Below, piece after piece: positions 265 to 64,000 of a stretch of DNA of 64,000 bases. How positions within the stretch are numbered: the first letter of the stretch is position 1; every line of letters begins with the position of its first letter. Location: NCBI RefSeq assembly GCF_964355755.1, contig NC_092680.1, positions 377,001-441,000 on the forward strand, read 5' to 3'. Under the pieces are notes generated by a model. It searched no databases. It saw only the letters and a program-made list of their open reading frames with translations, and was not told where the DNA came from. The DNA comes from Antedon mediterranea (lineage: Eukaryota; Echinodermata; Crinoidea; Comatulida; Antedonidae). The position numbers were made by a program, and so were the translations under genes.

Positions 265-3200
265 ACAAAGCTACTATTCCAGTATGTTCTTAATCTTGCA
301 AAGTATGACCAGAACTATGACATCCGTGATCGTTCGAGGTTCCTCCGACATCTTATTTTTCCTGGTGAGAAAGGAGGTGCTTTAAGCAAACATGCAAAGA
401 AGATATTCTTAGCTTCCAAGCCTGCCCCTGTATTGGAATCTGTTTTTAAAGGTAACTTGTATGCATCATTTGTCATCAAAAATATAATCTAATTTTTAGG
501 ATTATTATAATAAATCAGCCACTAATTGTGTTTGTCTTCAAATGGACATGCTGATTGAAGTTATTTTTAAAATTAAATTTTGTTGCCTTGTAGATCGTGA
601 CCAGTATCAGCTTGGATCTCTTTCCCATGTAATCAACAGTAAGGCAAATGGATACATTGAGCTGCCAAATTTCCCAGATGTAGCACCAGACCCAACAGTC
701 AGAAACGTTGAGGTAAGCAAATAACAACTTATCATTTCTTGAAAATTTCAACTTCCAACAAGCTATTTTCACAACAATTGTAAGAGTTGGATACACTGAA
801 TAATTAAATGGTAATACAGATACAGATAAACTGGAAATTGCATTGCTCACTTATCACAAAAACAGATATAAAAATATTATTGAAATACTTGATATTTTAG
901 GAGGTTATAACATGGTCTAAATCAAAAGATAAGGGTAAAAAAGCCAGGAAGCCCAAGTCATTTTACTCCAGTAGTTCTGAAGATGATGATGACGAAGATG
1001 AGACTAGCTCAGGTAAGAAATATTTATACATTCTCAATTTTAAAATAGTTATACAATAAAAAGGACAATAAGTGTTTAGTCATAGAATCAAGAACAACTA
1101 AATTACTGTGGTAATTGCAGATGCAAATGGGTTTATACTAAAAATAATAATTCATTCAATATCTGGAAAACATCCACGTAACATAATAATTTGTTTTGCA
1201 CTTTTTCATTAATTTCTTTAAAATCATGTTATCAACAGATGAAGGCTCCAGTAGTGAGTCCGACTCAGAATCTGGGTCCGAATCTGGAAGTGAATCGGAT
1301 AGCGGGTCAGAAGCAAGCAGTGCTGAAAGTGAGGCAAGTAATTCATCAATGGATACTGACAGGGAATCATCAGAGAGTGAATCAGAAGTATCGGAGAGTG
1401 ACAGCAGCAGCTCAGATAGTGACAGTGATTCAAGTGTTGAAAAACAACCTGTTAAAAAGGTAGGTCATTGACCGGGGTTTTATTTCTGTGAAATTATAAA
1501 ACTACCATGCCGTGAATTACTTTAACTTTTAATAAAGTAAGTAAATTCAAGATTAACTTTATTGTCGCATACAAATATTTGTTAGTTAAAGAAGAAATAT
1601 TAAATATATACAGTATAAAACGCAACACCACCTAATATAATTTATCTTGAAAAATTTACATTATAGAGCTGACATGCAATCCTTCATAGCAAGAAATTAC
1701 TCCTTATTTATTATTTTAAAATTTAGAGTTCACCAACAAAAAGAAAAACAGCTAAAAAGGAAGCAACGCCATCAAAGAAGTCTACACCTAAGAAAAAAGA
1801 ACCTGAAATGCAACTTCTAGATTTTGGCGATGATGGTGAGTACACTTGAATATGTATCAAGCTAAAAAGTTGGATCATTATTAGATAGTACTTTTTATTT
1901 TGTTTGTTAAGTACAGCGCTTTATCTTACAGGAAAAGTTCTGTGTAGATTCTTATTTGGTTTCACACCTGGGGCACTGCCTTTTTATATGTCATTGTTTT
2001 GTATTCGTTGGATGGTGAGAATATTTCAATCGATGAAATATTGACTGCTTTATTTAACGAGGCCTCATAACAAATATTCTCCACCATCCAACTCATAAAC
2101 ATTCATTATTTGTCCTTTATTAATTCATCTCATATATTTTGATATATATTTTTGTTTTATCTCTTTATATTGATGGTACCGGGTTCAAAAAATTAAATTT
2201 AAATTTTTTGATTATGACATAAAATAAATACCTTTTGTATTTTAGTTGGCGACACTGCTGTTCCAGCTGGTGCTGCCCCTCCTGCTGCTGCCATAAATTC
2301 CGTCTTGATACCAACAATAGCTACTGATCTACAAGGCTTATCACTTAATGATAATAATTCTTCAGGCCTATCAGTGAGTATTTCTAGTATGCTGTTATGT
2401 TTTACTACCCTTCTTATCTGTTTATATTTATTATTAAAGAGTAGCTAAATACAACAAAATGTGATTTGAGATCAAAGATCAAGATTAAAAAAAATTGAAA
2501 TGGCCTCAAATCTTAAAATTTGCCAATTTTCAATACAAGTTGCCATACCAAGTTTTATGCTTCTAACCAAATTTGAAGTATTTTGGGTCTTAGGAGCTCC
2601 ACTAAACACACTTTGATACAATACAATTTTTGTAGACAACTGGTGCAATGTGCGTTCCATCCAAAACCTATGAGCTGTTGAACAGAATGAATAGTCAAGG
2701 CTTAACAGCATCTTACATGTTTAAGCGTCGTTCATCTATCTTCTCTACAACAATGGTAGCTGTGGAGATAACATTTACAAACAACAGTGATGCTCCAATA
2801 CAGTGTATCAAGATTGGTAAGTTTACTACAGAAATATTAGAATATGGATGTGTACTGCTAAGGAATCTAATGTAACAAAACATGTGTGTAAGCTTGTATG
2901 TGTTGTGATACCTTGTGCAACTAGCCCATGTTAACATGTGTGTAAGCTTGTATGTGTTGTGATACCTTGTGCAACTAGCCCATGTTAACATGTGTGTAAG
3001 CTTGTATGTGTTGTGATACCTTGTGCAACTAGCCCATGTTAACATGTGTGTAAGCTTGTATGTGTTGTGATACCTTGTGCAACTAGCCCATGTTAACATG
3101 TGTGTAAGCTTGTATGTGTTGTGATACCTTGTGCAACTAGCCCATGTTAACATGTGTGTAAGCTTGTATGTGTTGTGATACCTTGTGCAACTAGCCCATG

Positions 3201-6200
3201 TTAACATGTGTGTAAGCTTGTATGTGTTGTGATACCTTGTGCAACTAGCCCATGTTAACATGTGTGTAAGCTTGTATGTGTTGTGATACCTTGTGCAACT
3301 AGCCCATGTTAACATGTGTGTAAGCTTGTATGTGTTGTGATACCTTGTGCAACTAGCCCATGTTATTAAATGATTATATCACAAAACTGTATATTTAAAA
3401 CACCAAACAATTTGGGTAAAGTTTACTTGCAAAAAAGAAAATATATTTTTGTGTAATACAGTCAACTCTCCCAATACTGGGCTGGCCTAATATGTCTGGT
3501 TTTCCGAAAAGTCTGGTATTCTGAATGTGTTTCTAATAGCAAAAAGGAATTTTTGGAACTTTTGGGCCTCAAGAAAAGTCTGGTTTTGGGAGAGTTTCCG
3601 GTTTTCAGAGAGTATTGGGAGAGTTGACTGTAGTTAATCTAATATAATAATTACAACTTTATTTTTAGGTGAGAAAAAGTTGCAGGCAGGTATGACATTA
3701 CATGAGTTTAAAGAGATCACAAACTTAGAGTCAGGTGATTCCACCACAGTTAGTACAGGTATAGATTTCTGTGACACGATACAACCTGCAAACTTTGAAA
3801 TATGGTGAGTATCAACAATCAATCAATTATAGCGCAATCATTTGGTTGTTTTTTATTCAGATTTTGTAATGTAGTTTTTATTTATCCTATGGGTTGACCC
3901 TCAACTTGAGTCATTTGCAATTTTAAATAAAAACTACTAGGTATTTTAGTTCAATGTGGCTGTAGTGAATGTATTTTATGTGAAACATCACAAAAATAAA
4001 ATGAATCTCAATTATTATTTCTATTATTGTTATTATTTGAAATTGGCTTTTAGATTTGAATTTAAATATATTCTTTTTACTATTTAACTATTTTTTCTTT
4101 TTAATTTTGTTATATTCATACAACTTAGCATCACTGATGAGTTTGATACATGTGTGTAAGTTTTACAATAAGACTTTTTTTTTATTTCCCAAGTTTTTTA
4201 CTAACTATTTGATGGCTAACTCAACATTTTATAATTCCTTATGAATCGGTATATTTTTCCTCATTAATTAACAATGCCATTGGTTTACAGTTTGTTTATG
4301 CTATGTATTAAGCTCAGTCTACACTATCAAACCAGTGTTATGTGCCTAAATATGGTAGTGATATGCCCAAATATGGTAGTGATATGACATCATCATGTCC
4401 ATATATGGGCACATCACATAAGTTTGATAGTGTGGACAGAGCTTTACTAGTGCTATGCTACCTTACATATGAAGTATTGCCTTGTTTGTATACTCCCACA
4501 CCCAGAACAACTTGTTAACAATGATGTGTTTCCGAAACTTTTGCAAACTTCTACTTAAAGACCACTATTCCTAGTCTTAGTGATACCCATGTAAATATTG
4601 TTTTTAACTATTAGAAAACAAAGTAGTATTAAAAACAAAATCTTACCCATCCAAATGGGAAAAAATGTTATGTGGTGAAATTGTATGAGGTGTATGTAAT
4701 GGGGCTGTTGACAGTGAAAACAAATTATGGTACTTTTTTTAGGGAAATTGTCTGGTGTTCATAAATGGTATTTGATAATAATTATATTTACTGTAAAATA
4801 TCGTTTCTGTTATTGGATTATTTTGTGACTTTACTCTTTTATAGAATTGCATATCTTTATTCCCTTAATAAACGTTTTTTTCATCCAATATTAGTATTAA
4901 TATTTTCACAAGTGCAGAAGTATACTCTATTGAGTGCAATGGGGCAAAAAATTCCATGATGTGAAAGATGAAGGTTACATTTTTAGGGGGTGAAAGCTGA
5001 GTGAAAATATGACATTTCACCGAATGAACTTATTTGCCCTATTACACAAATATAAACATTATTTTAAACTGATCTAATTCTGGTTTTTTTCATGTTTTGT
5101 ATAGTAGTTGCCATTAAATAATATCATGTGACCCAATAATCATCCAATCAGTTTACAGAACTATACTTGTGTTATAAAATGTTTTAAATACTCAATTATT
5201 CAATAGCAAGTTTGGTTTTTTAACTTTTTTTCAACCTTTTTTACATTTTTATTTAGCTTAACAAAATTGTAAAGAGGTCATCTTCTTCCTAAGAATTTGT
5301 CCGTAAATTGTACATTAACCACACTACTAAAATTTGTACTTTTTTTGTTGAGAGTGAGCAGAAGGTGCTTACCATATGTAACATTTTGATAAAAACTGTA
5401 TTTTCATCAGGGGTTATAAATTTCTATATGTTCTGTACAATTTTTCATATTCTAAATTTATGCTAATTTTACATACTCGCACATAATTGTAATAATTTGA
5501 CTTTATTTCCTCTTTCAGCACGGAGTCAAGAAAATACAGCGTGAGCGTTAAATGTCCAGTCGGGGAACTCATCCAGCCTGCAATTATGAACGAAAGAGAC
5601 TTCCAAACACAACAAGGTATAACTTGTAGTTTTGTCTAAATTTCTTTAGATTTTATTTCATTTAATACAAAAATAAAAGGAGGACACATTTTGAATACAA
5701 TTTTGGAATTTGACATCAAGTAGACATATTATGCTGTAGTGAAAAACACTAGTATTACCGGTAGTTGCCTTTTCCTTGCACAGTCTGGTATCTGGCTTTG
5801 TTTTTTGCTGTTTGTGATCTTTTATACAGTACTCGATTTTATATTTATATATTTTTGGGTTTTTAAAATGAATTGTAAATATCCAATCTTATTTATTTAT
5901 ATATTGATTGCGAAAAAGAGGATGATTATTATTATTCAAATTATAATTTCAGGAAAGCTAGCTGGAATGAATGAAAACTCTGAGAAGGTTGATATTCCTG
6001 ACTCACTAAACAATCAGAAAGCAATCATGCAACGAGTCGGTGAAGTAGCCAACGTCCAAGTGGTACCACCGAGTGACCCTACCATTACCACATATCGGTT
6101 TGCTGGAAAGACCATATCGACCGGTACACCGGTGTTGGTCACTGTAAAAGCTGATGGCAATAAAAGTAAAATTACTGTAAACTGCGAGAAAATGATTATT

Positions 6201-12558: not shown

Positions 12559-13221
12559 AACACGCCAAACTAAACATACAGTACACAACTATTAAATTAT
12601 TTATTTATTTTAAAATTTAAACCTTTATTACTGAGTAGGCAGAAAAGACCTACGGTCGACAGACTCTTAGCTTCGGCTACAACTCGTTTTTTTACCAATG
12701 CGCACTGGCTATTCTTTTAGGTTTTTAGTCGCGTGCAACACGACTCTACAAGTTTATAACTTCTAGAAGGGATCCATGATAATAATGACTACCAATTACT
12801 GTTTCCACTATGTTCACTTTAATATCTTTTTTCTATTTTGTATATGTTCATTCATTATTATCTGAATAAATTTGATCTGAATCTGGATCTGAATCTGAAT
12901 CTGAACAATGTCGGTCGGTTGGTCGGTAAACACTAACTTGAGCACGCGACTGCAGCCATGTATATGGCCTTGTTAAAAGATACAGGGGTTCTTAAGATAT
13001 AATAATAATGCAGCCCGCAAGCGCATTTCGTGGCCAGCGAAGAGCTAGCTAAAATAAATATAAGTAATTTTAGAAAGGGCGAGAACTACTTACGCGCTCG
13101 TGCCAATGCTCCCCAATATTATAACATCCGTGATTTAACATTACAACTTATTTGTAACGTCATTTCCGCTAATAATAGTGTATATAGTATTATACTTATA
13201 CTAATAAACCAGTATAACAAT

Positions 13222-14891
13222 ATGGCAGACACTAGAATTGCTCAGACATTTGTATTTCACTTCCTCATGTTATTATCCACCATTATTTACATTGTTGGAT
13301 TAATACACGCAGTAGCTTATTTTAAAACTGAGAATTATATGGACGGCAATTGTACGGTTTCAAAAACATTTGTTAATGAAGAACAAACTCATTGCAATTG
13401 TTGCAACACAAAAAATAGTTCGTGTATTATGATTTTTGTAAATGTTTATACCAATACTGGAACACGGTTGCTGAAACTTTACCAATCCACTAGAGACATT
13501 GGAAAACGGGTAAGTTATAATATTAATTTAGCTCTGGGGTAAAGGAGGGGTATTTAGTTGCCTTACAGTGTAAAAGCAATAGTTAATATGTTTACGAGAA
13601 GGGTAACATTTTTTAGTAAGTAAGCGGTGCTTTTTACATTTTATGAAGATGTCTAGTACATCCGAACCTAACATGATGAACGTGTGACAAAAAGGGTTCG
13701 TAGCTCATAGTTCAAAATACAAAAAAATAAATATATATTAAGAAATTCAAAAATTAATCTATATCATATCAGAACATTAGTCTTTAGAAATACATGAAAA
13801 TAGGAAATTTAGCCAATAAAAATGTCTCCCCAAACTAATATCACAATATAATAATATCACAACATTTAGCCACTTTTAAGTGGCTATATGTTGTGATATT
13901 ATTATAATTGTACTTTAAAAAGTTTGGAAGGAAGAGATAAATAAATAACAAAGTTATAATATTGTCTCTACACATTACGCCTTACATGTAATACGGGGAA
14001 GAGATGTGTTGACCATACATTTCTGAGAAATTGGTTTTTAAAGGAAGTAATTTAAAGTAATTGTACAAAACGAAAGTTCAGGCACAAAAAGAGGAAATTT
14101 GCTGATATAATTATGCTGAATTCATTGGTAGGCTATTGTTCATAAAACAACAAAAATTATTAAAACATGGCAGCAAAAATGCTGAATTGCGTTTCAATTT
14201 ACAAAATATGTATACAATTGGTTAAAATTACTTTAACAATTTTTAAAAATTCCTGCTATAGGTCATAAAAAACAAATTCAACATCAAAAAACATATATGA
14301 AGAAACAGTAAAACTTCATTAAAAGAAACAATTACAAATTATTCATTTAAAGAATATTATTATCATATTGTATAACATTTCCTCCACGTGATCAAACTGA
14401 AAACTTGATTAAATTCAGATTGGTCCTGATCGTAGCTTAGGTGAAGTTTGTAACTTTTGAGTAACAATAGTGCTTAACTAATATTAGTTCAATGAACCTG
14501 TTAATTTCCTAATAATCGTATACTCAGAAAACGCAGGTTACCGTAATAAAATAATAATCATAATGAACCATTTTTCTTTCATCTTTAGTGTTTCTTACCG
14601 CTTTGTGATGATACGCCTTCTGGTGGATACAAGAAGTATGTCAAAGATAACTATCCAATCGGGAAAAAACTTGCTTGCAGTTATGACCAATATAATAGTG
14701 AAGCTGTGCTTAAAATGAATAGACAAAACATTCATTTTCACTTGTTGTTATGGCCATCATTGTTTTGGGTGACGTTTATTGCGTTCGTATGGCTTAAATC
14801 AGACTATAGTAAAACGCGTATATTCACGCCACTTACAAAATGTTGTTGTCACTGTTGTCCAACCGAATCAGAACATGCTACAAATACGTAG
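13222..14891 (+). CDS. KCNMB-like protein (BK-channel beta subunit family), two TM segments
   Basis: Two exons, 13222-13509 and 14589-14891 (TAG), give 196 residues with phase 0 at the junction; vertebrate KCNMB proteins are roughly 190-280. A very short N-terminus leads into TM1 (about 8-33). A Cys-rich extracellular loop follows, then TM2 (about 146-165) and a short Cys-rich tail. Family matches: the NCTV glycosylation site just after TM1, a C..C..C cluster, IFVNVYTN like the VQVYVNN stretch of KCNMB4, CFLPLC like its CSYIPPC, a single Cys before the final loop helix, and LLLWPSLFWV at the start of TM2. The ATG at 13222 has A at -3 and G at +4; the frame stays open upstream without another ATG. 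By family it would tune calcium-activated potassium channels at the plasma membrane. It lies between the SORD paralogues but is unrelated to them. The family call rests on remembered vertebrate sequence. Confidence 0.72.
13848..13905. other. 58-nt near-perfect hairpin
   Basis: Arms of 28 bases with one mismatch and a 2-base loop, in the intron of the KCNMB-like gene. It could be a small palindromic insertion, a tiny MITE or a hairpin RNA precursor; nothing in the sequence decides. Confidence 0.8.
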
Positions 14892-16717: not shown

Positions 16718-19700
16718 ATGGCAGGACAGGACGGTAATCTATCGGCGGTACTCAAGAGAAAAGATGAGCTTGTTTTGGTAAGTATTATTATTATTTATGA
16801 GACTGAATGTTAAAGATTCTAAATAAATACGAATCTGGATCTGGTAACTAGTGTACAAACGCGCCAGGCTATTACATACAGGTTACACATTATTGTGTTT
16901 TGACTCGTATTCAATCTAAGCCTCGATTTGTATCTTCTGTAAATGAACAGATTGTATATGTAAATATAGGCTACAGTAGTTGATAAACTGTATTCGCACC
17001 TGGTAGCATCGACATAAGTGCATAATATAATCTTTGACCTGTAGTCCGTAGTTGTTATTTGTTACTTGATTGCCTAAAATCATACTTTGAATAGGATTAA
17101 AAACAACCACAGAGTTTCTTTGTTAGTTCCTTATAACTAATATTACTATGCAATATTTCTTTTAGGAGAACACGCCCGTACCTAAACCTGGAAAAAATGG
17201 TAATTTGACTTTTCATCATCAAAACTCGTTATTTCAAAATGATATTAGGATAGTATATTGATGCCTTTGTATGTAAAATGAATGACTTTTAGCTTAAAAA
17301 GTCGGGGGTGGGGGGGGGGGAGTTTTTGTAAGAAATAGTTGTTGTTTAGAGATAATGTTAAGTTGCATTTTTTGTTTACTGTAATATTCTTTGCAATAGA
17401 ACCATAAATACCAATTCAATTTTAATGCCAGTTTGGTTACATCTTGTTATGTTATTCATTTTAACGCGTGCCTTTCTTCCTTAACCAGAGGTTCAGATTC
17501 GAATGCAACGTGTTGGTATCTGTGGATCTGACGTACACTACTTGAGACATGGACGATGTGGACCCTTTATCGTTGAAGCACCAATGATCCTGGGTCATGA
17601 ATCAAGTGGTATTGTTTCCGAACTTGGTGAAGGTGTAACCAATCTCAAAGTAGGTAAGTCATCAATTATCTTAGGCCATCAAATAAGCGATGTTGTTTTA
17701 GAATTTGGCGAGGGTGTGTTAAAGGACGTGGACCTGATCGTGTCGTAGCCACAGGTAAACATTTTGATCTCCGAAGTTGCTCAGCATCCTGTTGTTAGAT
17801 TGTTTTCACCCACTGAACAATCATACCATTGTATGCTACACATTACCGCAACCAGCCAATCATTGGTCATTGTAGCGATTTAAACTTCTAAACAAATATC
17901 TTTTAGGTGATCGTGTGGCCATTGAGCCTGGCGTGCCCTGCCGTGTATGCTCCTTTTGTAAAGACGGTCGTTATCATCTCTGTCCAGACGTCATCTTCTG
18001 CGCAACACCACCAGTCGATGGATCACTCAGACGCTATTACACACACGCTGCAGATTTTTGCTTCAAGTAATTACTATCAATTCATAGACAGGATAAATTA
18101 GGTGGAATGTATTAACTTAATCCTAAATTTAATTTGTATTCCATAATCTATCATAGGTCTATCAATACATCCGATTCTCGATACCTAGATTTCTCCAGTA
18201 GAAAATTATTGTATTATCTCCCCTCATCGGAAAATTATTGTATTATCTCCCCTCATCTAGGAACATTTTTATTTTGTGAATGTGCAATTTAACTGGTTTT
18301 TTTTTACTAAAATGCCAACCAGAGGTAACACAAGTTGACATTTCGGACATTTCTGGATGTACTAATGCTAACAGCATAATAGAACATTTGAACTCAATAC
18401 TGTGTTTGCTTAATTTTAGAATACCAGACCACGTAAGTCTGGACGAAGCTGCTCTTTTGGAACCACTTTCCGTCGGTGTTCATGCATGCAAACGTGCTAA
18501 CATTACTCTTGGTCACAAGGTTCTCGTCTGTGGTGCAGGTACGTAATATACCAATGTTCTCGTCTGTGGTGCAGGTACCTAATATACCAATTCTGATGTG
18601 CTTAAATCGATTGATACTACAATTTTAGTAAAAAAAACAAAACAACTTAAATTGAACATTCGCAAAATAAAAATGACAAAATCCAGGGGAGTTATGGGGA
18701 CACTCTAACAGGGAAAGAAAGAGAACAATTATCTATTTTTGTGTGCCTGTTGATGTGTGCATAATAATAGCAGATGAACTAAACTAATTTCTCCAACATG
18801 CTAATACTTTATTATCACATTTATACACAATCATTTTCCATAATTAATAATTATGATAGAAGTTTTACTTTATTTAAGTTATATATGAATGTAGGCCTAT
18901 AATGTGAATTTTAAAATTCAATAATAAAATCAGTTACCATTTCTAGGACCAATCGGACTAGTGTCAATGCTGTCGGCAAAGGCAATGGGAGCTGCAGAAG
19001 TTGTGATTACAGACCTGGACAAGAAACGGTTAGCTAAAGCAAAAGAAATCGGTGCAACATACACCGTGCAAGTTGATAGCAAAGATCCTAAGATAGTGGC
19101 CAAAAAGGTAGAGGACGCCCTTGGTGCAATGCCTGACGCTACGATCGAGTGCAGCGGAGCGGAACCAAGCATCCAACTTGCTCTCCGTGTAAGTGTTATA
19201 TTAAATATATATAATAATATTATATCCAATATTACACTTGTGTATTTTTAATGTTGTAATTCTTTAAATTCATTTTCTCGTGTACCTGTCATTTTATGAT
19301 AGTTATGGTATTTCTAAAATTAAATTTACAAAATGTATTGCTTTATTTCTATCGCCATTAATAACAAATTTCATGGAACATGAGATTAAATTCCATTCGT
19401 TTGTAAATTGCATACAGAATTCAGTATCTCAGTTATTTCCTCTGTCAAACTATTCAAAATGATTTAATGATGATATTTGAATGTTTTTGATATTTATTAT
19501 CTGTATTTTTATATTATTGTTAATTGTTTTAATTCAGCCTCGTGCTGCGACCAAATATTTGTTGAATACATTTGTTTTTCATTTAATTTCATAATGGTAT
19601 ATTTATTAAAATCATCTTCACAGAAAAACTGAATTGTGACAATTGTGTACATTATTAAAAGGTACTTAAAATATTTAATTTTTAAATGAATAAATAAACT

Positions 19701-39061: not shown

Positions 39062-42000
39062 ATGGATGTGATAGAGACTTATGGATTATTATGTGCATCT
39101 CATTCATTTGAAGTGATCATAACTACCTTGACTCTTGCTATTTACCTGTTGTCTGTAAACCTAGGCCTTGAAATCACACCACCATGCAGCTCAAGCATTC
39201 CTTGCTTTAATGCAACAAAGGTAAAAACCAGATATTGTAACCCTGAAATAATTGTAGCCCACCCCTATTGTGTCCTGTTGCCCAATACCGTAAAATCTCA
39301 AAAAGAAGCCTATCTGGGGGAAAAAGCCCCTGCCCCCTCCAACCCTCTGTTGGCAAAAGTGATCTCGTATCTAGAAGCCCATCTTGAAAACAAGCCCACC
39401 CAAGAGTCCTAATAAGAAGTCCATGAGCTTCTTATCGAGGTTTTACAGTATTGTGTTGATGGACAGTAAGCGGAAAAGCAAACAAAACAGCTATCCCCTA
39501 TCAGTAGTAAACGCACATGTACTGGAAAGCTCTTCTTAAGTTGTAGTACTGTATTTTGCATACTCCATACTTCTAAAAATGATTAGCAATATGAAACCTT
39601 AAGTTTGAAATTAAAGTTTAATGCTCGCGAAAGTCTCTCATTTTACAGTAATACCAACACCAATCAAATCATGATAATGTTAAGTACAATTATTTTTTTT
39701 CGCTAGGATGAGGCAGTTTTTGGTGATATATTGATGACCTTTGCAAGGTCACTAGCTGTTTGTTACATTTACTTCCAGTTTCGAAACTTAAAAAAGAGAC
39801 ATTCCAAGTATGTCATTGGTAAGTTTTATAGATACATACCTTTCTCAATAACTACATTCTTATGCCTTAGAATTCCAAGTGCTCTATCGTTTTTCTAGAT
39901 TAGTTTTCTAGATGTTCAAGTGAAACAGCTAGCAACTACTGTATTATTTTTAATTTTCAATAACTGCAATGACAGTAAAGTTAAAGATTATAATTATTTA
40001 ATTGTTTTTTTTCGTTATAGGTGTTGCAGCTCTCTTTACTGGCTTGTGTGCGTTTATATTTGCCAGTGTTGCTGTACACGTCTTTAACAAAGATCTTGTA
40101 AATATTCCGTAAGTATACATTGAATTTGCCAAATTTGAATTGAAATATTTGATTTATACTGGGTGACCTCTGGGTGACCTCTTCAGTCAAAGACTGATCT
40201 CCCAGAGGCCCCAGTTGTGACCAGTGGCTGTGATGTACTAGTACATCAGGATAACCCCTACTTGTCTCAAAAGATGTACTAGGTTCTTTAAAATGAGATG
40301 AATGTGTACACATTATACAGTTATTATTATCTGAGAAGACTCAATGTGTAAAAAACTTGTTGCTTCTCATGTATGTCATATTTGTAGCTTAAAAATAAAA
40401 AGAGTATGAAAATTGTGCTTTGGATAATTTTATTTTTTATTTTCAGAGATGTTTTACCAGTTTTTCTTTTAATGGTTGATCTTTCCAAATCAAGTCAGTT
40501 GACCAGTTTTGCCGTTGCAGCAGATAATGAGGTGAACAATCTTAAAATTTGTCCAAAATATCCAAACTTATTGAATCATCAAGCTATTTCGATTAAGCCG
40601 TGGGCTATGCTCACGCTAAGATTAATTGTACACACATACAATACACTGACATTAAAATCATCTTTATATTAACTCTTTAAATTGATTTAAAAATATTATA
40701 TTTGCAAATGTTTTTGTGTAATACAAAAGAGCTTATAAGCACAACTGTACACAAACAGCTTTTTAACAATATTTTTTTTATTTTTTGGTTTCAGGTAAAA
40801 CTTGCAGAGAGCATAGCTCATGGTCTGAAAACAATGGCACCATCAGTGACTTTAGATGCAGTTGTCATGGCCTTGGCTTTTTCTCTAGGTTCACAGTCGG
40901 GTAAGATGGAGTACATAATATTTATTATTCTGTGGCTTGCTCAAGTAATTGGAATGAAAAGAAGGTGCATTAAACTTTTGGTTTTTCAGGTGTACATCAG
41001 TTGGAGTTGATGTGTTCCTTTGCATTCATTGCTATTATAACCAACTATGTTGTCTTCATGACTGTCTTCCCAGCATGCCTTTCACTTGTACTTGAGGTTA
41101 GTATAACTGGATTGAACATGTCATTAGAAAAGAAAATGAAGATCCTACAAAAATACGTACTTTCTACACAGAATAAAAAACGAAATGGAAGATACCATCA
41201 GTATTTGATTTATTTAATTTTTATGTGAATCATATTTTAAAAGGGTGATCCATCCAGCAATTGGTGATCATTTGGGACCCTCAGAACAGATACAATTTCA
41301 CAATATAAAACAATAGCAGTAAAGAAAAAAAAAAGTCTATACATAAATAAATTACATGAGAATTAAAAATGTGAATAAGAAAATTTGGAATATAGTAAAC
41401 AACTGATATGTTAAATTACTGATAAAGTTGTGCAAACAAGTCAAATTGGTAGATGCAACTACATCAGGGCCAGCTTCACTAGAAGAGTCCCGACATAGTA
41501 TATTACTAACTGTCAAATTGGTAGATGCAACTACATCAGGGCCAGCTTCACTAGAAGAGTCCTGACATAGTATATTACTGACTGTCAAATTGGTAGATGC
41601 AACTACATCAGGGCCAGCGCACTAGAAGAGTCCCGACATAGTATATTACTGACTGTCAAATTGGTAGATGCAACTACATCAGGGCCAGCTTCACAAGAAG
41701 AGTCCTGACCTAATATATTACTTAATTTATTTTTGTCAAACTAGTTTGATAGTGTAGACTGAGCTTTACTTTTTGTTTTCAATCACTAGCTTTGTAATCA
41801 TGGGGTAAGTGGATATCCTGTATGGAAACAAGGCAAATCATCAGAGTCATTAGAAGAACAGCAACCAAGTACAGCTAATCCTGTACTACAGAAGGTCAAA
41901 CTAGTTATGGTGAGTACATCACCTTACCTGGTAAGCTAATCCTGTACTACAGAAGTTTAACTAGTTACGGTTAGTACATCACCTTACCTGGTACAGCTAA

Positions 42001-45000
42001 TCCTGTACTACAGAAGGTTAAACTAGTTAGGTGAGTACATCGCTTTACCTGGTACAGCTAATCCTGTACTACAGAAGGTTAAACTAGTTATGGTGAGTAC
42101 ATCACCTTACCTGGTACAGCTATTCCTGTACTACAGAAGGTTAAACTAGTTATGGTGAGTACATCACCTTACCTGGTACAGCTAATCCTGTACTACAGAA
42201 GGTCAAACTAGTTATGGTGAGTACATCACCTTACCTGGTACAGCTATTCCTGTACTACAGAAGGTTAAACTAGTTATGGTGAGTACATCACCTTACCTGG
42301 TACAGCTAATCCTGTACTACAGAAGGTCAAACTAGTTATGGTGAGCACATCACCTTACCTGGTACAGCTAATCCTGTACTACAGAAGGTCAAACTAGTTA
42401 TGGTGAGTACATCACCTTACCTGGTACAGCTAATCCTGTACTACATAAGGTCAAACTAGTTATGGTGAGTACATCACCTTACCTGGTACAGCTAATCCTG
42501 TACTACAGAAGGTCAAACTAGTTATGGTGAGTACATCACCTTACCTGGTACAGCTATTCCTGTACTACAGAAGGTTAAACTAGTTATTGTGAGTACATCA
42601 CCTTACCTGGTACAGCTAATCCTGTACTACAGAAGGTCAAACTAGTTATGGTGAGTACATCACCTTACCTGGTAAGCTAATCCTGTACTACAGAAGGTTA
42701 AACTAGTTATGGTGAGTACATCACCTTACCTGGTACAGCTAATCTGTACTACAGAAGGTCAAACTAGTTATGGTGAGTACATCACCTCACCTGGCACAGC
42801 TAATCCTGTACTACAGAAGGTTAAACTAGTTATGGTGAGTACATCACCTTACCTGGTACAGCTAATCCTGTACTACAGAAGGTTAAACTAGTTATGGTGA
42901 GTACATCACCTTACCTGGTACAGCTAATCCTGTACTACATAAGGTCAAACTAGTTATGGTGAGTACATCACCTTACCTGGTACAGCTAATCCTGTACTAC
43001 AAAAGCTCAAACTAGTTATGGTGAGTACATCACCTTACCTGGTACAGCTATTCCTGTACTACAGAAGGTTAAACTAGTTATGGTGAGTACATCACCTTAC
43101 CTGGTACAGCTAATCCTGTACTACATAAGGTCAAACTAGTTATGGTGAGTACATCACCTTACCTGGTAAGCTAATCCTGTACTACAGAAGGTTAAACTAG
43201 TTATGGTGAGTACATCATCTTACCTGGTACAGCTAATCTGTACTACAGAAGGTCAAACTAGTTATGGTGAGTACATCACCTTACCTGGCACAGCTAATCC
43301 TGTACTACAGAAGGTTAAACTAGTTATGGTGAGTACATCACCTTACCTGGTACAGCTAATCCTGTACTACAGAAGGTTAAACTAGTTATGGTGAGTACAT
43401 CACCTTACCTGGTACAGCTAATCCTGTACTACAGAAGGTTAAACTAGTTATGGTGAGTACATCACCTTACCTGGTACAGCTAATCCTGTACTACAGAAGG
43501 TTAAACTAGTTATGGTGAGTACATCACCTTACCTGGTAAGCTAATCCTGTACTACAGAAGGTTAAACTAGTTATGGTGAGTACATCACCTTACCTGGTAA
43601 GCTAATCCTGTACTACAGAAGGTTAAACTAGTTATGGTGAGTACATCACCTTACCTGGTACAGCTAATCCTGTACTACAGAAGGTCAAACTAGTTATGGT
43701 GAGTACATCACTTTACCTGGTACAGCTAATCCTGTACTACAGAAGGTTAAACTAGTTATGGTGAGTACATCACCTTACCTGGTACAGCTAATCCTGTACT
43801 ACAGAAGGTCAAACTAGTTATGGTGAGTACATCACCTTACCTGGTACAGCTAATACTGTTGTTACACAAAGAAAATAATAATTTCTAAATTCTTGTTCTT
43901 CCCTCTTTATGAAATGACAAATGAATAACAAATAAGTTAAAATGAATTTTTATTTATTTAAATTAGTCTTTTGGGCTTGTGGTTGTACATGCACATCGCT
44001 TCACATCTGATGATGTCATAGAAGATAGAAACAACCAGACATTGCTGGTGCCTTCTGGTGATGACACTGTTGAAATGACGCATCAAATACCTTTATGGCA
44101 ATTGTATATTATGAGGTAATATTTTATAAATACTGTAAATTACTGTATCCTATAATCTCTTTCTTCAAGTCTCCTTTCGTCTACCGCCCTGATCTGTAAA
44201 GTCTCTAATGTTCAACCAAGTACTGTCCAACACATACATTTGTTTTATTTCATAGGGCTGTTACTGTTAATGTGGAACAAGTATTTACCTGTGTGTTAGC
44301 TCTAGTTCTCATGGCTAAGTTCTTCTATATTGATGTGGCTGATAAAAAACGCACCAGGTTCACCAGTTATAATAGTGGTAAGAATTTAATTATTTAATTT
44401 AAAGATGTATTGTCCCCCAAAATCATGAAAAATGAAGATTAGTAAAAAAAGACTTTGAATAGTCCATTTCGCAGTTTTTTAAGTAATCACTTCCGTAGAA
44501 AAAAACACTTAAAAAAAAAATGATTCTTATGAATTAAATGAATACCATTTCCTAAAACTATATTCAATATTATACTAAATTTACATTTACAATATGCATT
44601 TCTTTCAGAACACTCTAACTGTGATCTTTATGACGGTATTGACCTATCGTCATTGCTACACAAACACAAAGATTTAACAGACATATCAACACAAACAACA
44701 CCAAAAAGGAAAAGGATGTTTAGAATTGGTAGTGTGACATCTGAGAACTCATCTAGTAGTGAAGCAGAGCAGTCTGAAGAGGATGAACACAGTGCATGTC
44801 TTCCCAAGCAGCCGAGGTCATTAGAGGAATGTCTGAAAATCCTGAATAATCCAGATGTAAGTTAATTGTTTCTAAAAAATGTATTGTTACTTCTGTTACT
44901 CTCTCTTTTTTTTGTATTACTCTTTCCATGATTTGTTTCCATATTTTTCTGTTTTGGGCAGGATGGTTTGTTATTGTTAGTCTACATTTTTCCCTTTTAA

Positions 45001-63308: not shown

Positions 63309-64000
63309 CTTACAGTATGTGTATGCTTACCTTATGTGTGTGCCTACCTTATGTGTGTGCTTACCTTATGTGTATGCTTACCTTATGTGTGTGCTTACCT
63401 TATGTGTGTGCCTACCTTATGTGTGTGCCTACCTTATGTGTGTGCCTACCTTATGTGTGTGCTTACCTTATGTGTGTGCTTACCTTATGTGTGTGCTTAC
63501 CTTATGTGTGTGCTTACCTTATGTGTGTGCTTACCTTATGTGTGTGCTTACCTTATGTGTGTGCCTACCTTATGTGTGTGCCTACCTTATGTGTGTGCTT
63601 ACCTTATGTGTGTGCTTACCTTATGTGTGTGCTTACCTTATGTGTGTGCTTACCTTATGTGTGTGCTTACCTTATGTGTGTGCTTACCTTATGTGTGTGC
63701 TTACCTTATGTGTGTGCTTACCTTATGTGTGTGCTTACCTTATGTGTGTGCTTACCTTATGTGTGTGCTTACCTTATGTGTGTGCTTACCTTATGTGTGT
63801 GCTTACCTTATGTCTGTGCTTACCTTATGTGTGTGCTTACCTTATGTGTGTGCTTACCTTATGTGTGTGCTTACCTTATGTGTGTGCTTACCTTATGTGT
63901 GTGCTTACCTTATGTGTGTGCTTACCTTATGTGTGTGCTTACCTTATGTGTGTGCCTACCTTATGTGTGTGCCTACCTTATGTGTGTGCCTACCTTATGT
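63309..64000. repeat. 17-bp minisatellite, ~40 copies, running off the window end
   Basis: Unit CTTACCTTATGTGTGTG, with a CCTACC variant at both ends of the array. On the minus strand each unit reads AAGGTAAGC, a near-consensus 5' splice site. Confidence 0.97.

What the first reader, a model, noticed from the sequence alone, without database searches (positions are those of the whole stretch)
41869..43858. HMGCR splice junction amplified ~32-fold into a minisatellite
Seen: the 62-bp unit is exactly the last 41 bases of HMGCR exon 7 plus the first 21 bases of intron 7, repeated head to tail so that almost the whole intron is copies of its own 5' splice site. Nearly all copies keep ATG|GTGAGT. 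Reading on from exon 7 meets TAG inside the second copy before its donor, so any donor but the first gives a premature stop. The array is therefore about 31 decoy donors, each leading to a nonsense transcript, in the gene for the rate-limiting sterol enzyme. Inference: copy number could tune reductase mRNA through U1 competition or nonsense-mediated decay. It is also a coding-sequence-born satellite, a rare origin.
Basis: partly seen in the sequence, partly recalled or inferred. Interest (0 to 1): 0.88.

Follow-up and report, generated by a model that had tools for sequence, protein, structure and literature searches.

The report
Minisatellite made from HMGCR splice junction
In an AT-rich animal genome, the end of one HMG-CoA reductase exon and the start of the next intron have been copied head to tail 32 times; this is a known kind of harmless-looking repeat (called a mirage in lancelets) that recurs in other genes of the same genome, and nothing here suggests it is a regulatory switch.

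Summary
Window 41869-43859 holds 32 full copies and one partial copy of a 62-bp unit: the last 41 bases of a conserved HMGCR exon plus the first 21 bases of its intron. The array fills 95% of the 2,057-bp intron. Splicing from the first donor to exon 8 (starts at 43967) rebuilds human-like HMGCR without a gap.

The regulatory reading is not supported. The donor 9-mer is intact in 28 of 32 copies; the neutral rate for the rest of the unit predicts 27.8. The two copies next to the real donor are the most decayed. Read-through meets TAA at 41937 (not TAG), so retention isoforms do carry a stop, but an 18-nt in-frame micro-exon path avoids any stop.

Such arrays are already described in amphioxus as mirages, with normal splicing reported. 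This genome is not Branchiostoma (30-38% GC against about 42%). I found the same architecture in DHX8, DNAH1, EHHADH and a rabaptin-like gene, and a two-copy precursor in a sorbitol dehydrogenase gene of the same window. Best reading: a neutral, slippage-born junction minisatellite, a new member of a known kind, apparently in a new lineage. No RNA, long-read or relatives' data were available.

The parts
41790..41909 (+).
   Evidence: the acceptor position at 41789/41790 is inferred from the sequence
41869..41930 (+). Copy 1 of the unit: 41 exon bases and 21 intron bases; contains the functional donor ATG|GTGAGT at 41909/41910
41931..43843 (+). Copies 2-32 of the junction unit; 27 of them keep ATG|GTGAGT; copies 2 (5 changes) and 3 (3 changes) are the most diverged
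43844..43859 (+). Partial 33rd copy, 15 of 16 bases matching the start of the unit
41937..41939 (+). First in-frame stop (TAA) met by read-through from the exon
43860..43966 (+). Remaining unique intron with the acceptor ...TTAAATTAG
43967..44115 (+). HMGCR exon 8 ([11 protein letters not shown]...)
   Evidence: the 3' end is inferred from the GT at 44116
18516..18591 (+). Two-copy, 36-bp duplication of an exon-intron junction in the second sorbitol dehydrogenase gene (GTTCTCGTCTGTGGTGCAG|GTACGTAATATAC); related structure in the same window

Best explanation
A mirage-type minisatellite: a tandem duplication that happened to span an exon-intron junction and then grew by slippage or unequal exchange. 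Shown: the unit is the junction; the exon part is the conserved original; the copies are nearly homogeneous inside and diverged at the 5' edge; the donor is no better conserved than the rest; other genes in the genome carry the same architecture. Inferred: the founding duplication went through short flanking homology (GTACAGCTAATnCTGT at both ends, 15/16); the spliceosome keeps using the first donor because it is the one nearest the upstream acceptor (exon definition); the extra copies are removed with the intron and are close to neutral.
For: Unit identity and copy table. Gap-free protein across first donor and acceptor. Donor 9-mer intact in 28 of 32 copies against 27.8 expected, and 38 of 54 nine-base windows are at least as intact as the donor window. 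Copies 2 and 3, next to the real donor, carry the most changes (5 and 3), while copy 1, which is coding, has none at scored sites. The unit occurs nowhere else in the genome search. The same architecture in DHX8, DNAH1, EHHADH, a rabaptin-like gene, and a two-copy precursor in SORD. Donor-containing arrays are not clearly more numerous than arrays of the same motif read backwards: 523 vs 457 matches for GGTGAGT, 1451 vs 2510 for GGTAAGT. Published mirages in amphioxus: same structure, unit sizes 10-72 bp in Adh3, normal mRNA.
Against: No RNA data, so use of the first donor is not shown. The neutrality test has low power with 32 related copies. The control that arrays with a scrambled motif do not sit on exon edges (0 of 8 against 4 of 24) is not statistically significant.
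Confidence: 0.85

Rival explanations
1. Regulatory decoys: inner donors compete for U1 or produce nonsense transcripts, and copy number tunes HMGCR mRNA.
For: 27 extra donors are identical to the real one over nine bases, and all retention products meet a stop at 41937.
Against: Donor sequence is no better kept than the rest of the unit. The same structure occurs in unrelated genes. Amphioxus mirages are reported not to interfere with regular splicing.
Confidence: 0.06
2. In-frame micro-exons: the unit carries CTACAG|AAGGTYAAACTAGTTATG|GTGAGT, an 18-nt cassette in phase 0 that would insert KVKLVM repeats before a membrane helix.
For: 25 intact in-frame cassettes (26 with one KVKLVI); inserting them keeps the frame open. 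CTAAT resembles a branch site (by eye).
Against: There is no pyrimidine tract, 18-nt exons are poorly recognised, and there is no RNA evidence.
Confidence: 0.03
3. Assembly artefact: the array is collapsed or expanded by the assembler.
For: Tandem arrays are prone to this; no reads could be inspected.
Against: Copies carry individual and block-shared variants (the ordered run of deletion at unit position 4, deletion at position 12, C at position 2 occurs in copies 14-16 and again in 22-24). Several other genes show the same architecture. Exact copy number remains uncertain.
Confidence: 0.03
4. Intron birth by duplication of an AGGT-bearing exon segment (Rogers model): the intron itself was created by the repeat.
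For: Almost the whole intron is array, and mirages have been proposed as a route to new introns.
Against: The donor in use is ATG|GTGAGT, not AG|GT. The acceptor lies in unique sequence outside the array, and the last 107 intron bases are not array. Intron presence in relatives could not be tested.
Confidence: 0.03

Closest known systems
Mirages: tandem repeats spanning exon-intron boundaries in amphioxus Adh3, globin BflGb6 and BflGb9, troponin C, presenilin region, PGBD5 (PMC3087553, PMC3902484; original Canestro et al. 2002 could not be read)
   Same: Minisatellite unit built from an exon end plus adjacent intron with the splice signal; tens of bp per unit (Adh3 10-72 bp); homogenised interior with diverged edge; coding protein preserved by use of the authentic site.
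   Different: Here in a 33% GC genome that is not Branchiostoma; 32 copies filling 95% of the intron; 5' junction only in the cases found. Length polymorphism and mRNA not tested here.
[quoted passage not shown] ATP2A1, potato RdRp; PMC4974935)
   Same: Tandem duplication of gene segments that carry splice signals.
   Different: No new intron is shown; the donor in use is not an AGGT; the acceptor is outside the duplication.
Ordinary intronic minisatellites
   Same: Slippage-type array with high identity; the same window has several others.
   Different: Founding unit includes coding exon sequence and the functional splice donor.

Membership tests
Mirage minisatellite | Tandem repeat spans an exon-intron boundary | tested here: met
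   41 exon + 21 intron bases in copy 1
Mirage minisatellite | Repeat copies carry the splice signal | tested here: met
   GT donor in all 32 copies, ATG|GTGAGT in 28
Mirage minisatellite | Authentic exon kept, coding sequence intact | tested here: met
   Gap-free alignment to HMGCR across the splice
Mirage minisatellite | Interior homogenised, edges excluded from homogenisation | tested here: met
   Most changes in copies 2 and 3 and in the partial last copy
Mirage minisatellite | Length instability between haplotypes | not testable with these tools
   One assembly only
Mirage minisatellite | Normal mRNA splicing despite the copies | not testable with these tools
   No RNA data
Rogers-type intron gain | Duplicated exonic AGGT supplies both GT and AG of the new intron | tested here: not met
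   Donor ATG|GTGAGT; acceptor AAATTAG in unique sequence
Rogers-type intron gain | Intron absent from relatives | not testable with these tools
   No eukaryote relatives held
Regulatory decoy donors | Donor motif conserved beyond the rest of the unit | tested here: not met
   28 intact against 27.8 expected; the test has low power

The most novel reading that the evidence does not exclude
Junction minisatellites are a widespread, recurrent class in a non-cephalochordate animal genome. In each such gene, tens of identical 5' splice sites compete and one is always chosen, with HMGCR copy number mildly affecting splicing efficiency or mRNA level.
Probability: 0.08. Interest if true: 0.75.

Novelty: new member of a known kind. 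Interest (0 to 1): 0.42.

Why it matters
If the class holds up, it is a natural experiment in 5' splice-site choice: up to 32 near-identical donors in one intron, in essential genes including the splicing helicase DHX8. It also extends mirages, reported from amphioxus in the papers I could search, to another lineage, and shows stages from two copies (SORD) to 32 (HMGCR). That is useful for models of minisatellite birth and intron growth.

Tried and rejected
- The 72-bp array in the preceding HMGCR intron (41440-41722) as a second junction array: no significant match to the exon or elsewhere in the window.
- The 54-bp array at 2879-3365: it starts about 63 bp past a likely donor, not across it.
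- The 17-bp array at 63316-64000, which runs on past the window end: the minus strand reads AG|GTAAGC, but no exon was recognised at its edge.
- L042 (48-bp unit, 16 aa, open frame throughout): probably a coding repeat, not counted. L056 and L065: ambiguous, not counted.
- Tunicate marker GH6: no hit, uninformative because no control rang.
- Period-8 higher-order structure over the whole array: not supported; only a local block is shared.

Full report
WHAT IS THERE. Tandem Repeats Finder reports 41869-43859, period 62, 32.3 copies, 96% match. A wrap-around alignment gives 32 full copies and a partial one. Copy 1 is the last 41 bases of a coding exon (41869-41909) plus 21 intron bases. The exon is the original: its peptide [11 protein letters not shown] matches NPVTQRVKMIM of the solved HMGCR membrane domain, and joining 41909 to 43967 continues [10 protein letters not shown] against SLGLVLVHAH without a gap (E 1.2e-16; join checked). 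Downstream exons match the HMGCR catalytic domain. The array takes up 1,950 of 2,057 intron bases, and the unit was found nowhere else in the genome.

CONSEQUENCES FOR SPLICING. All 32 copies have a GT at the donor position; 28 keep ATG|GTGAGT. If sequence is retained up to any later donor, the frame stops at TAA 41937 in copy 2 (that run used an acceptor one base too early, which does not affect stops inside the array; corrected). There is one exception: CTACAG|AAGGTYAAACTAGTTATG|GTGAGT in 25 copies would form an 18-nt, in-frame cassette adding KVKLVM. It is poorly suited to splicing and is offered only as a caveat.

IS IT KEPT FOR A PURPOSE? Per-cell divergence outside the common C/T variant at unit position 29 is 1.5%. 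That predicts 27.8 intact donor 9-mers in 32 copies; 28 are seen, and 38 of 54 windows are as intact or better. The exon part of the unit varies more than the intron part (0.90 against 0.33 changed copies per position), but much of this is the single site at position 29. The copies nearest the true donor are the most decayed (5 and 3 changes), as expected for an array whose edge escapes homogenisation. The test is weak because copies share ancestry, but it gives no support to selection on decoys. A run of three rare variants is shared by copies 14-16 and 22-24, which indicates growth by blocks.

HOW IT BEGAN (inference). The sequence after the last full copy begins GTACAGCTAATACTGT, 15 of 16 identical to the start of the unit. 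This is either a truncated copy or a short direct repeat through which the first duplication occurred.

NOT UNIQUE IN THIS GENOME. A genome pattern search for three spaced GGTGAGT or GGTAAGT gave arrays, of which 24 were fetched and read at their 5' edge. Four begin on a coding exon and continue through its donor. DHX8: MQIHLTEPPG|DILMFLTGQ, 37-bp unit, joined peptide E 6.7e-58. DNAH1: NDGQINM|DEWRFLLSGG, 23-bp unit, E 7.7e-36. EHHADH: DIDII...GYGWPRH, 21-bp unit, E 2.4e-25; the two-residue gap in that alignment arises from my guessed join, and a join at AAG|GATTTACGGG would close it (sequence). A rabaptin-like gene: 17-bp unit, Rab5-bind E 2.9e-8, just over the cut-off, with the best stretch in the downstream exon. 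In the same window, a sorbitol dehydrogenase gene has its junction duplicated once (18516-18591). Eight arrays of the reversed motif showed no exon at their edges, but 4 of 24 against 0 of 8 is not significant, and the reading was by eye. Donor-motif matches are not clearly in excess of the backward control (523 vs 457; 1451 vs 2510). Ten random 8-kb pieces carry 2.3% tandem repeat, and the window 10%. The simplest view is that this genome makes many minisatellites and those that begin on a junction are tolerated.

COMPARISON WITH WHAT IS KNOWN. Tandem repeats spanning exon-intron boundaries are described in amphioxus as mirages, with Adh3 units of 10-72 bp, homogenised interiors, length instability and RT-PCR evidence that regular splicing continues (PMC3087553; PMC3902484). 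The original 2002 paper was not held. The structure here meets every defining feature I could test. The genome is not Branchiostoma: 30-38% GC in random samples and 354 Mb in 18 contigs, against about 42% GC and 468 Mb in 19 chromosomes for B. lanceolatum (PMC11907188). The species was not identified, and I cannot exclude another cephalochordate. Full-text searches found no mirage report outside amphioxus, but most subscription papers are not held.

VERDICT. Observation confirmed, regulatory reading unsupported, origin reading correct but not unprecedented. The interest lies in the recurrence of the class in a new lineage and in the splice-site choice problem that it makes testable.

Noticed in passing
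window 18516-18591: A second sorbitol dehydrogenase gene has its exon-intron junction duplicated once (36 bp); the second donor has changed from GTACGT to GTACCT. A likely early stage of the same process.
   Followed up: yes
window 63316-64000 and L009 2316-3523: 17-bp unit, 71 copies; the minus strand reads AG|GTAAGCACACACATA, a strong donor-like sequence repeated 71 times; no exon recognised at its edge.
   Followed up: partly
window 2879-3365: Nine 54-bp copies with 100% identity in an intron of an AP-3 beta-like gene, so very recent or under conversion.
   Followed up: partly
window 41440-41722: A separate 72-bp, 3.9-copy array in the preceding HMGCR intron, unrelated in sequence to the exon.
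   Followed up: partly
G000 C3 about 19.6-25.1 Mb: More than 15 near-equal myosin head exon matches spread over about 5.5 Mb of one contig, suggesting a large expansion of myosin heavy chain genes.
   Followed up: no
L042 and L061 (C1:23494000-23500600): A 48-bp array reading openly as a 16-aa repeat (VSTLSHLHRHDAVSGL) downstream of a coding-like stretch; probably a coding repeat whose unit contains GGTGAGT.
   Followed up: partly
window 13009-13542: ORF with a weak match to the calcium-activated potassium channel beta subunit (Pfam CaKB, E 0.0016, below cut-off).
   Followed up: no
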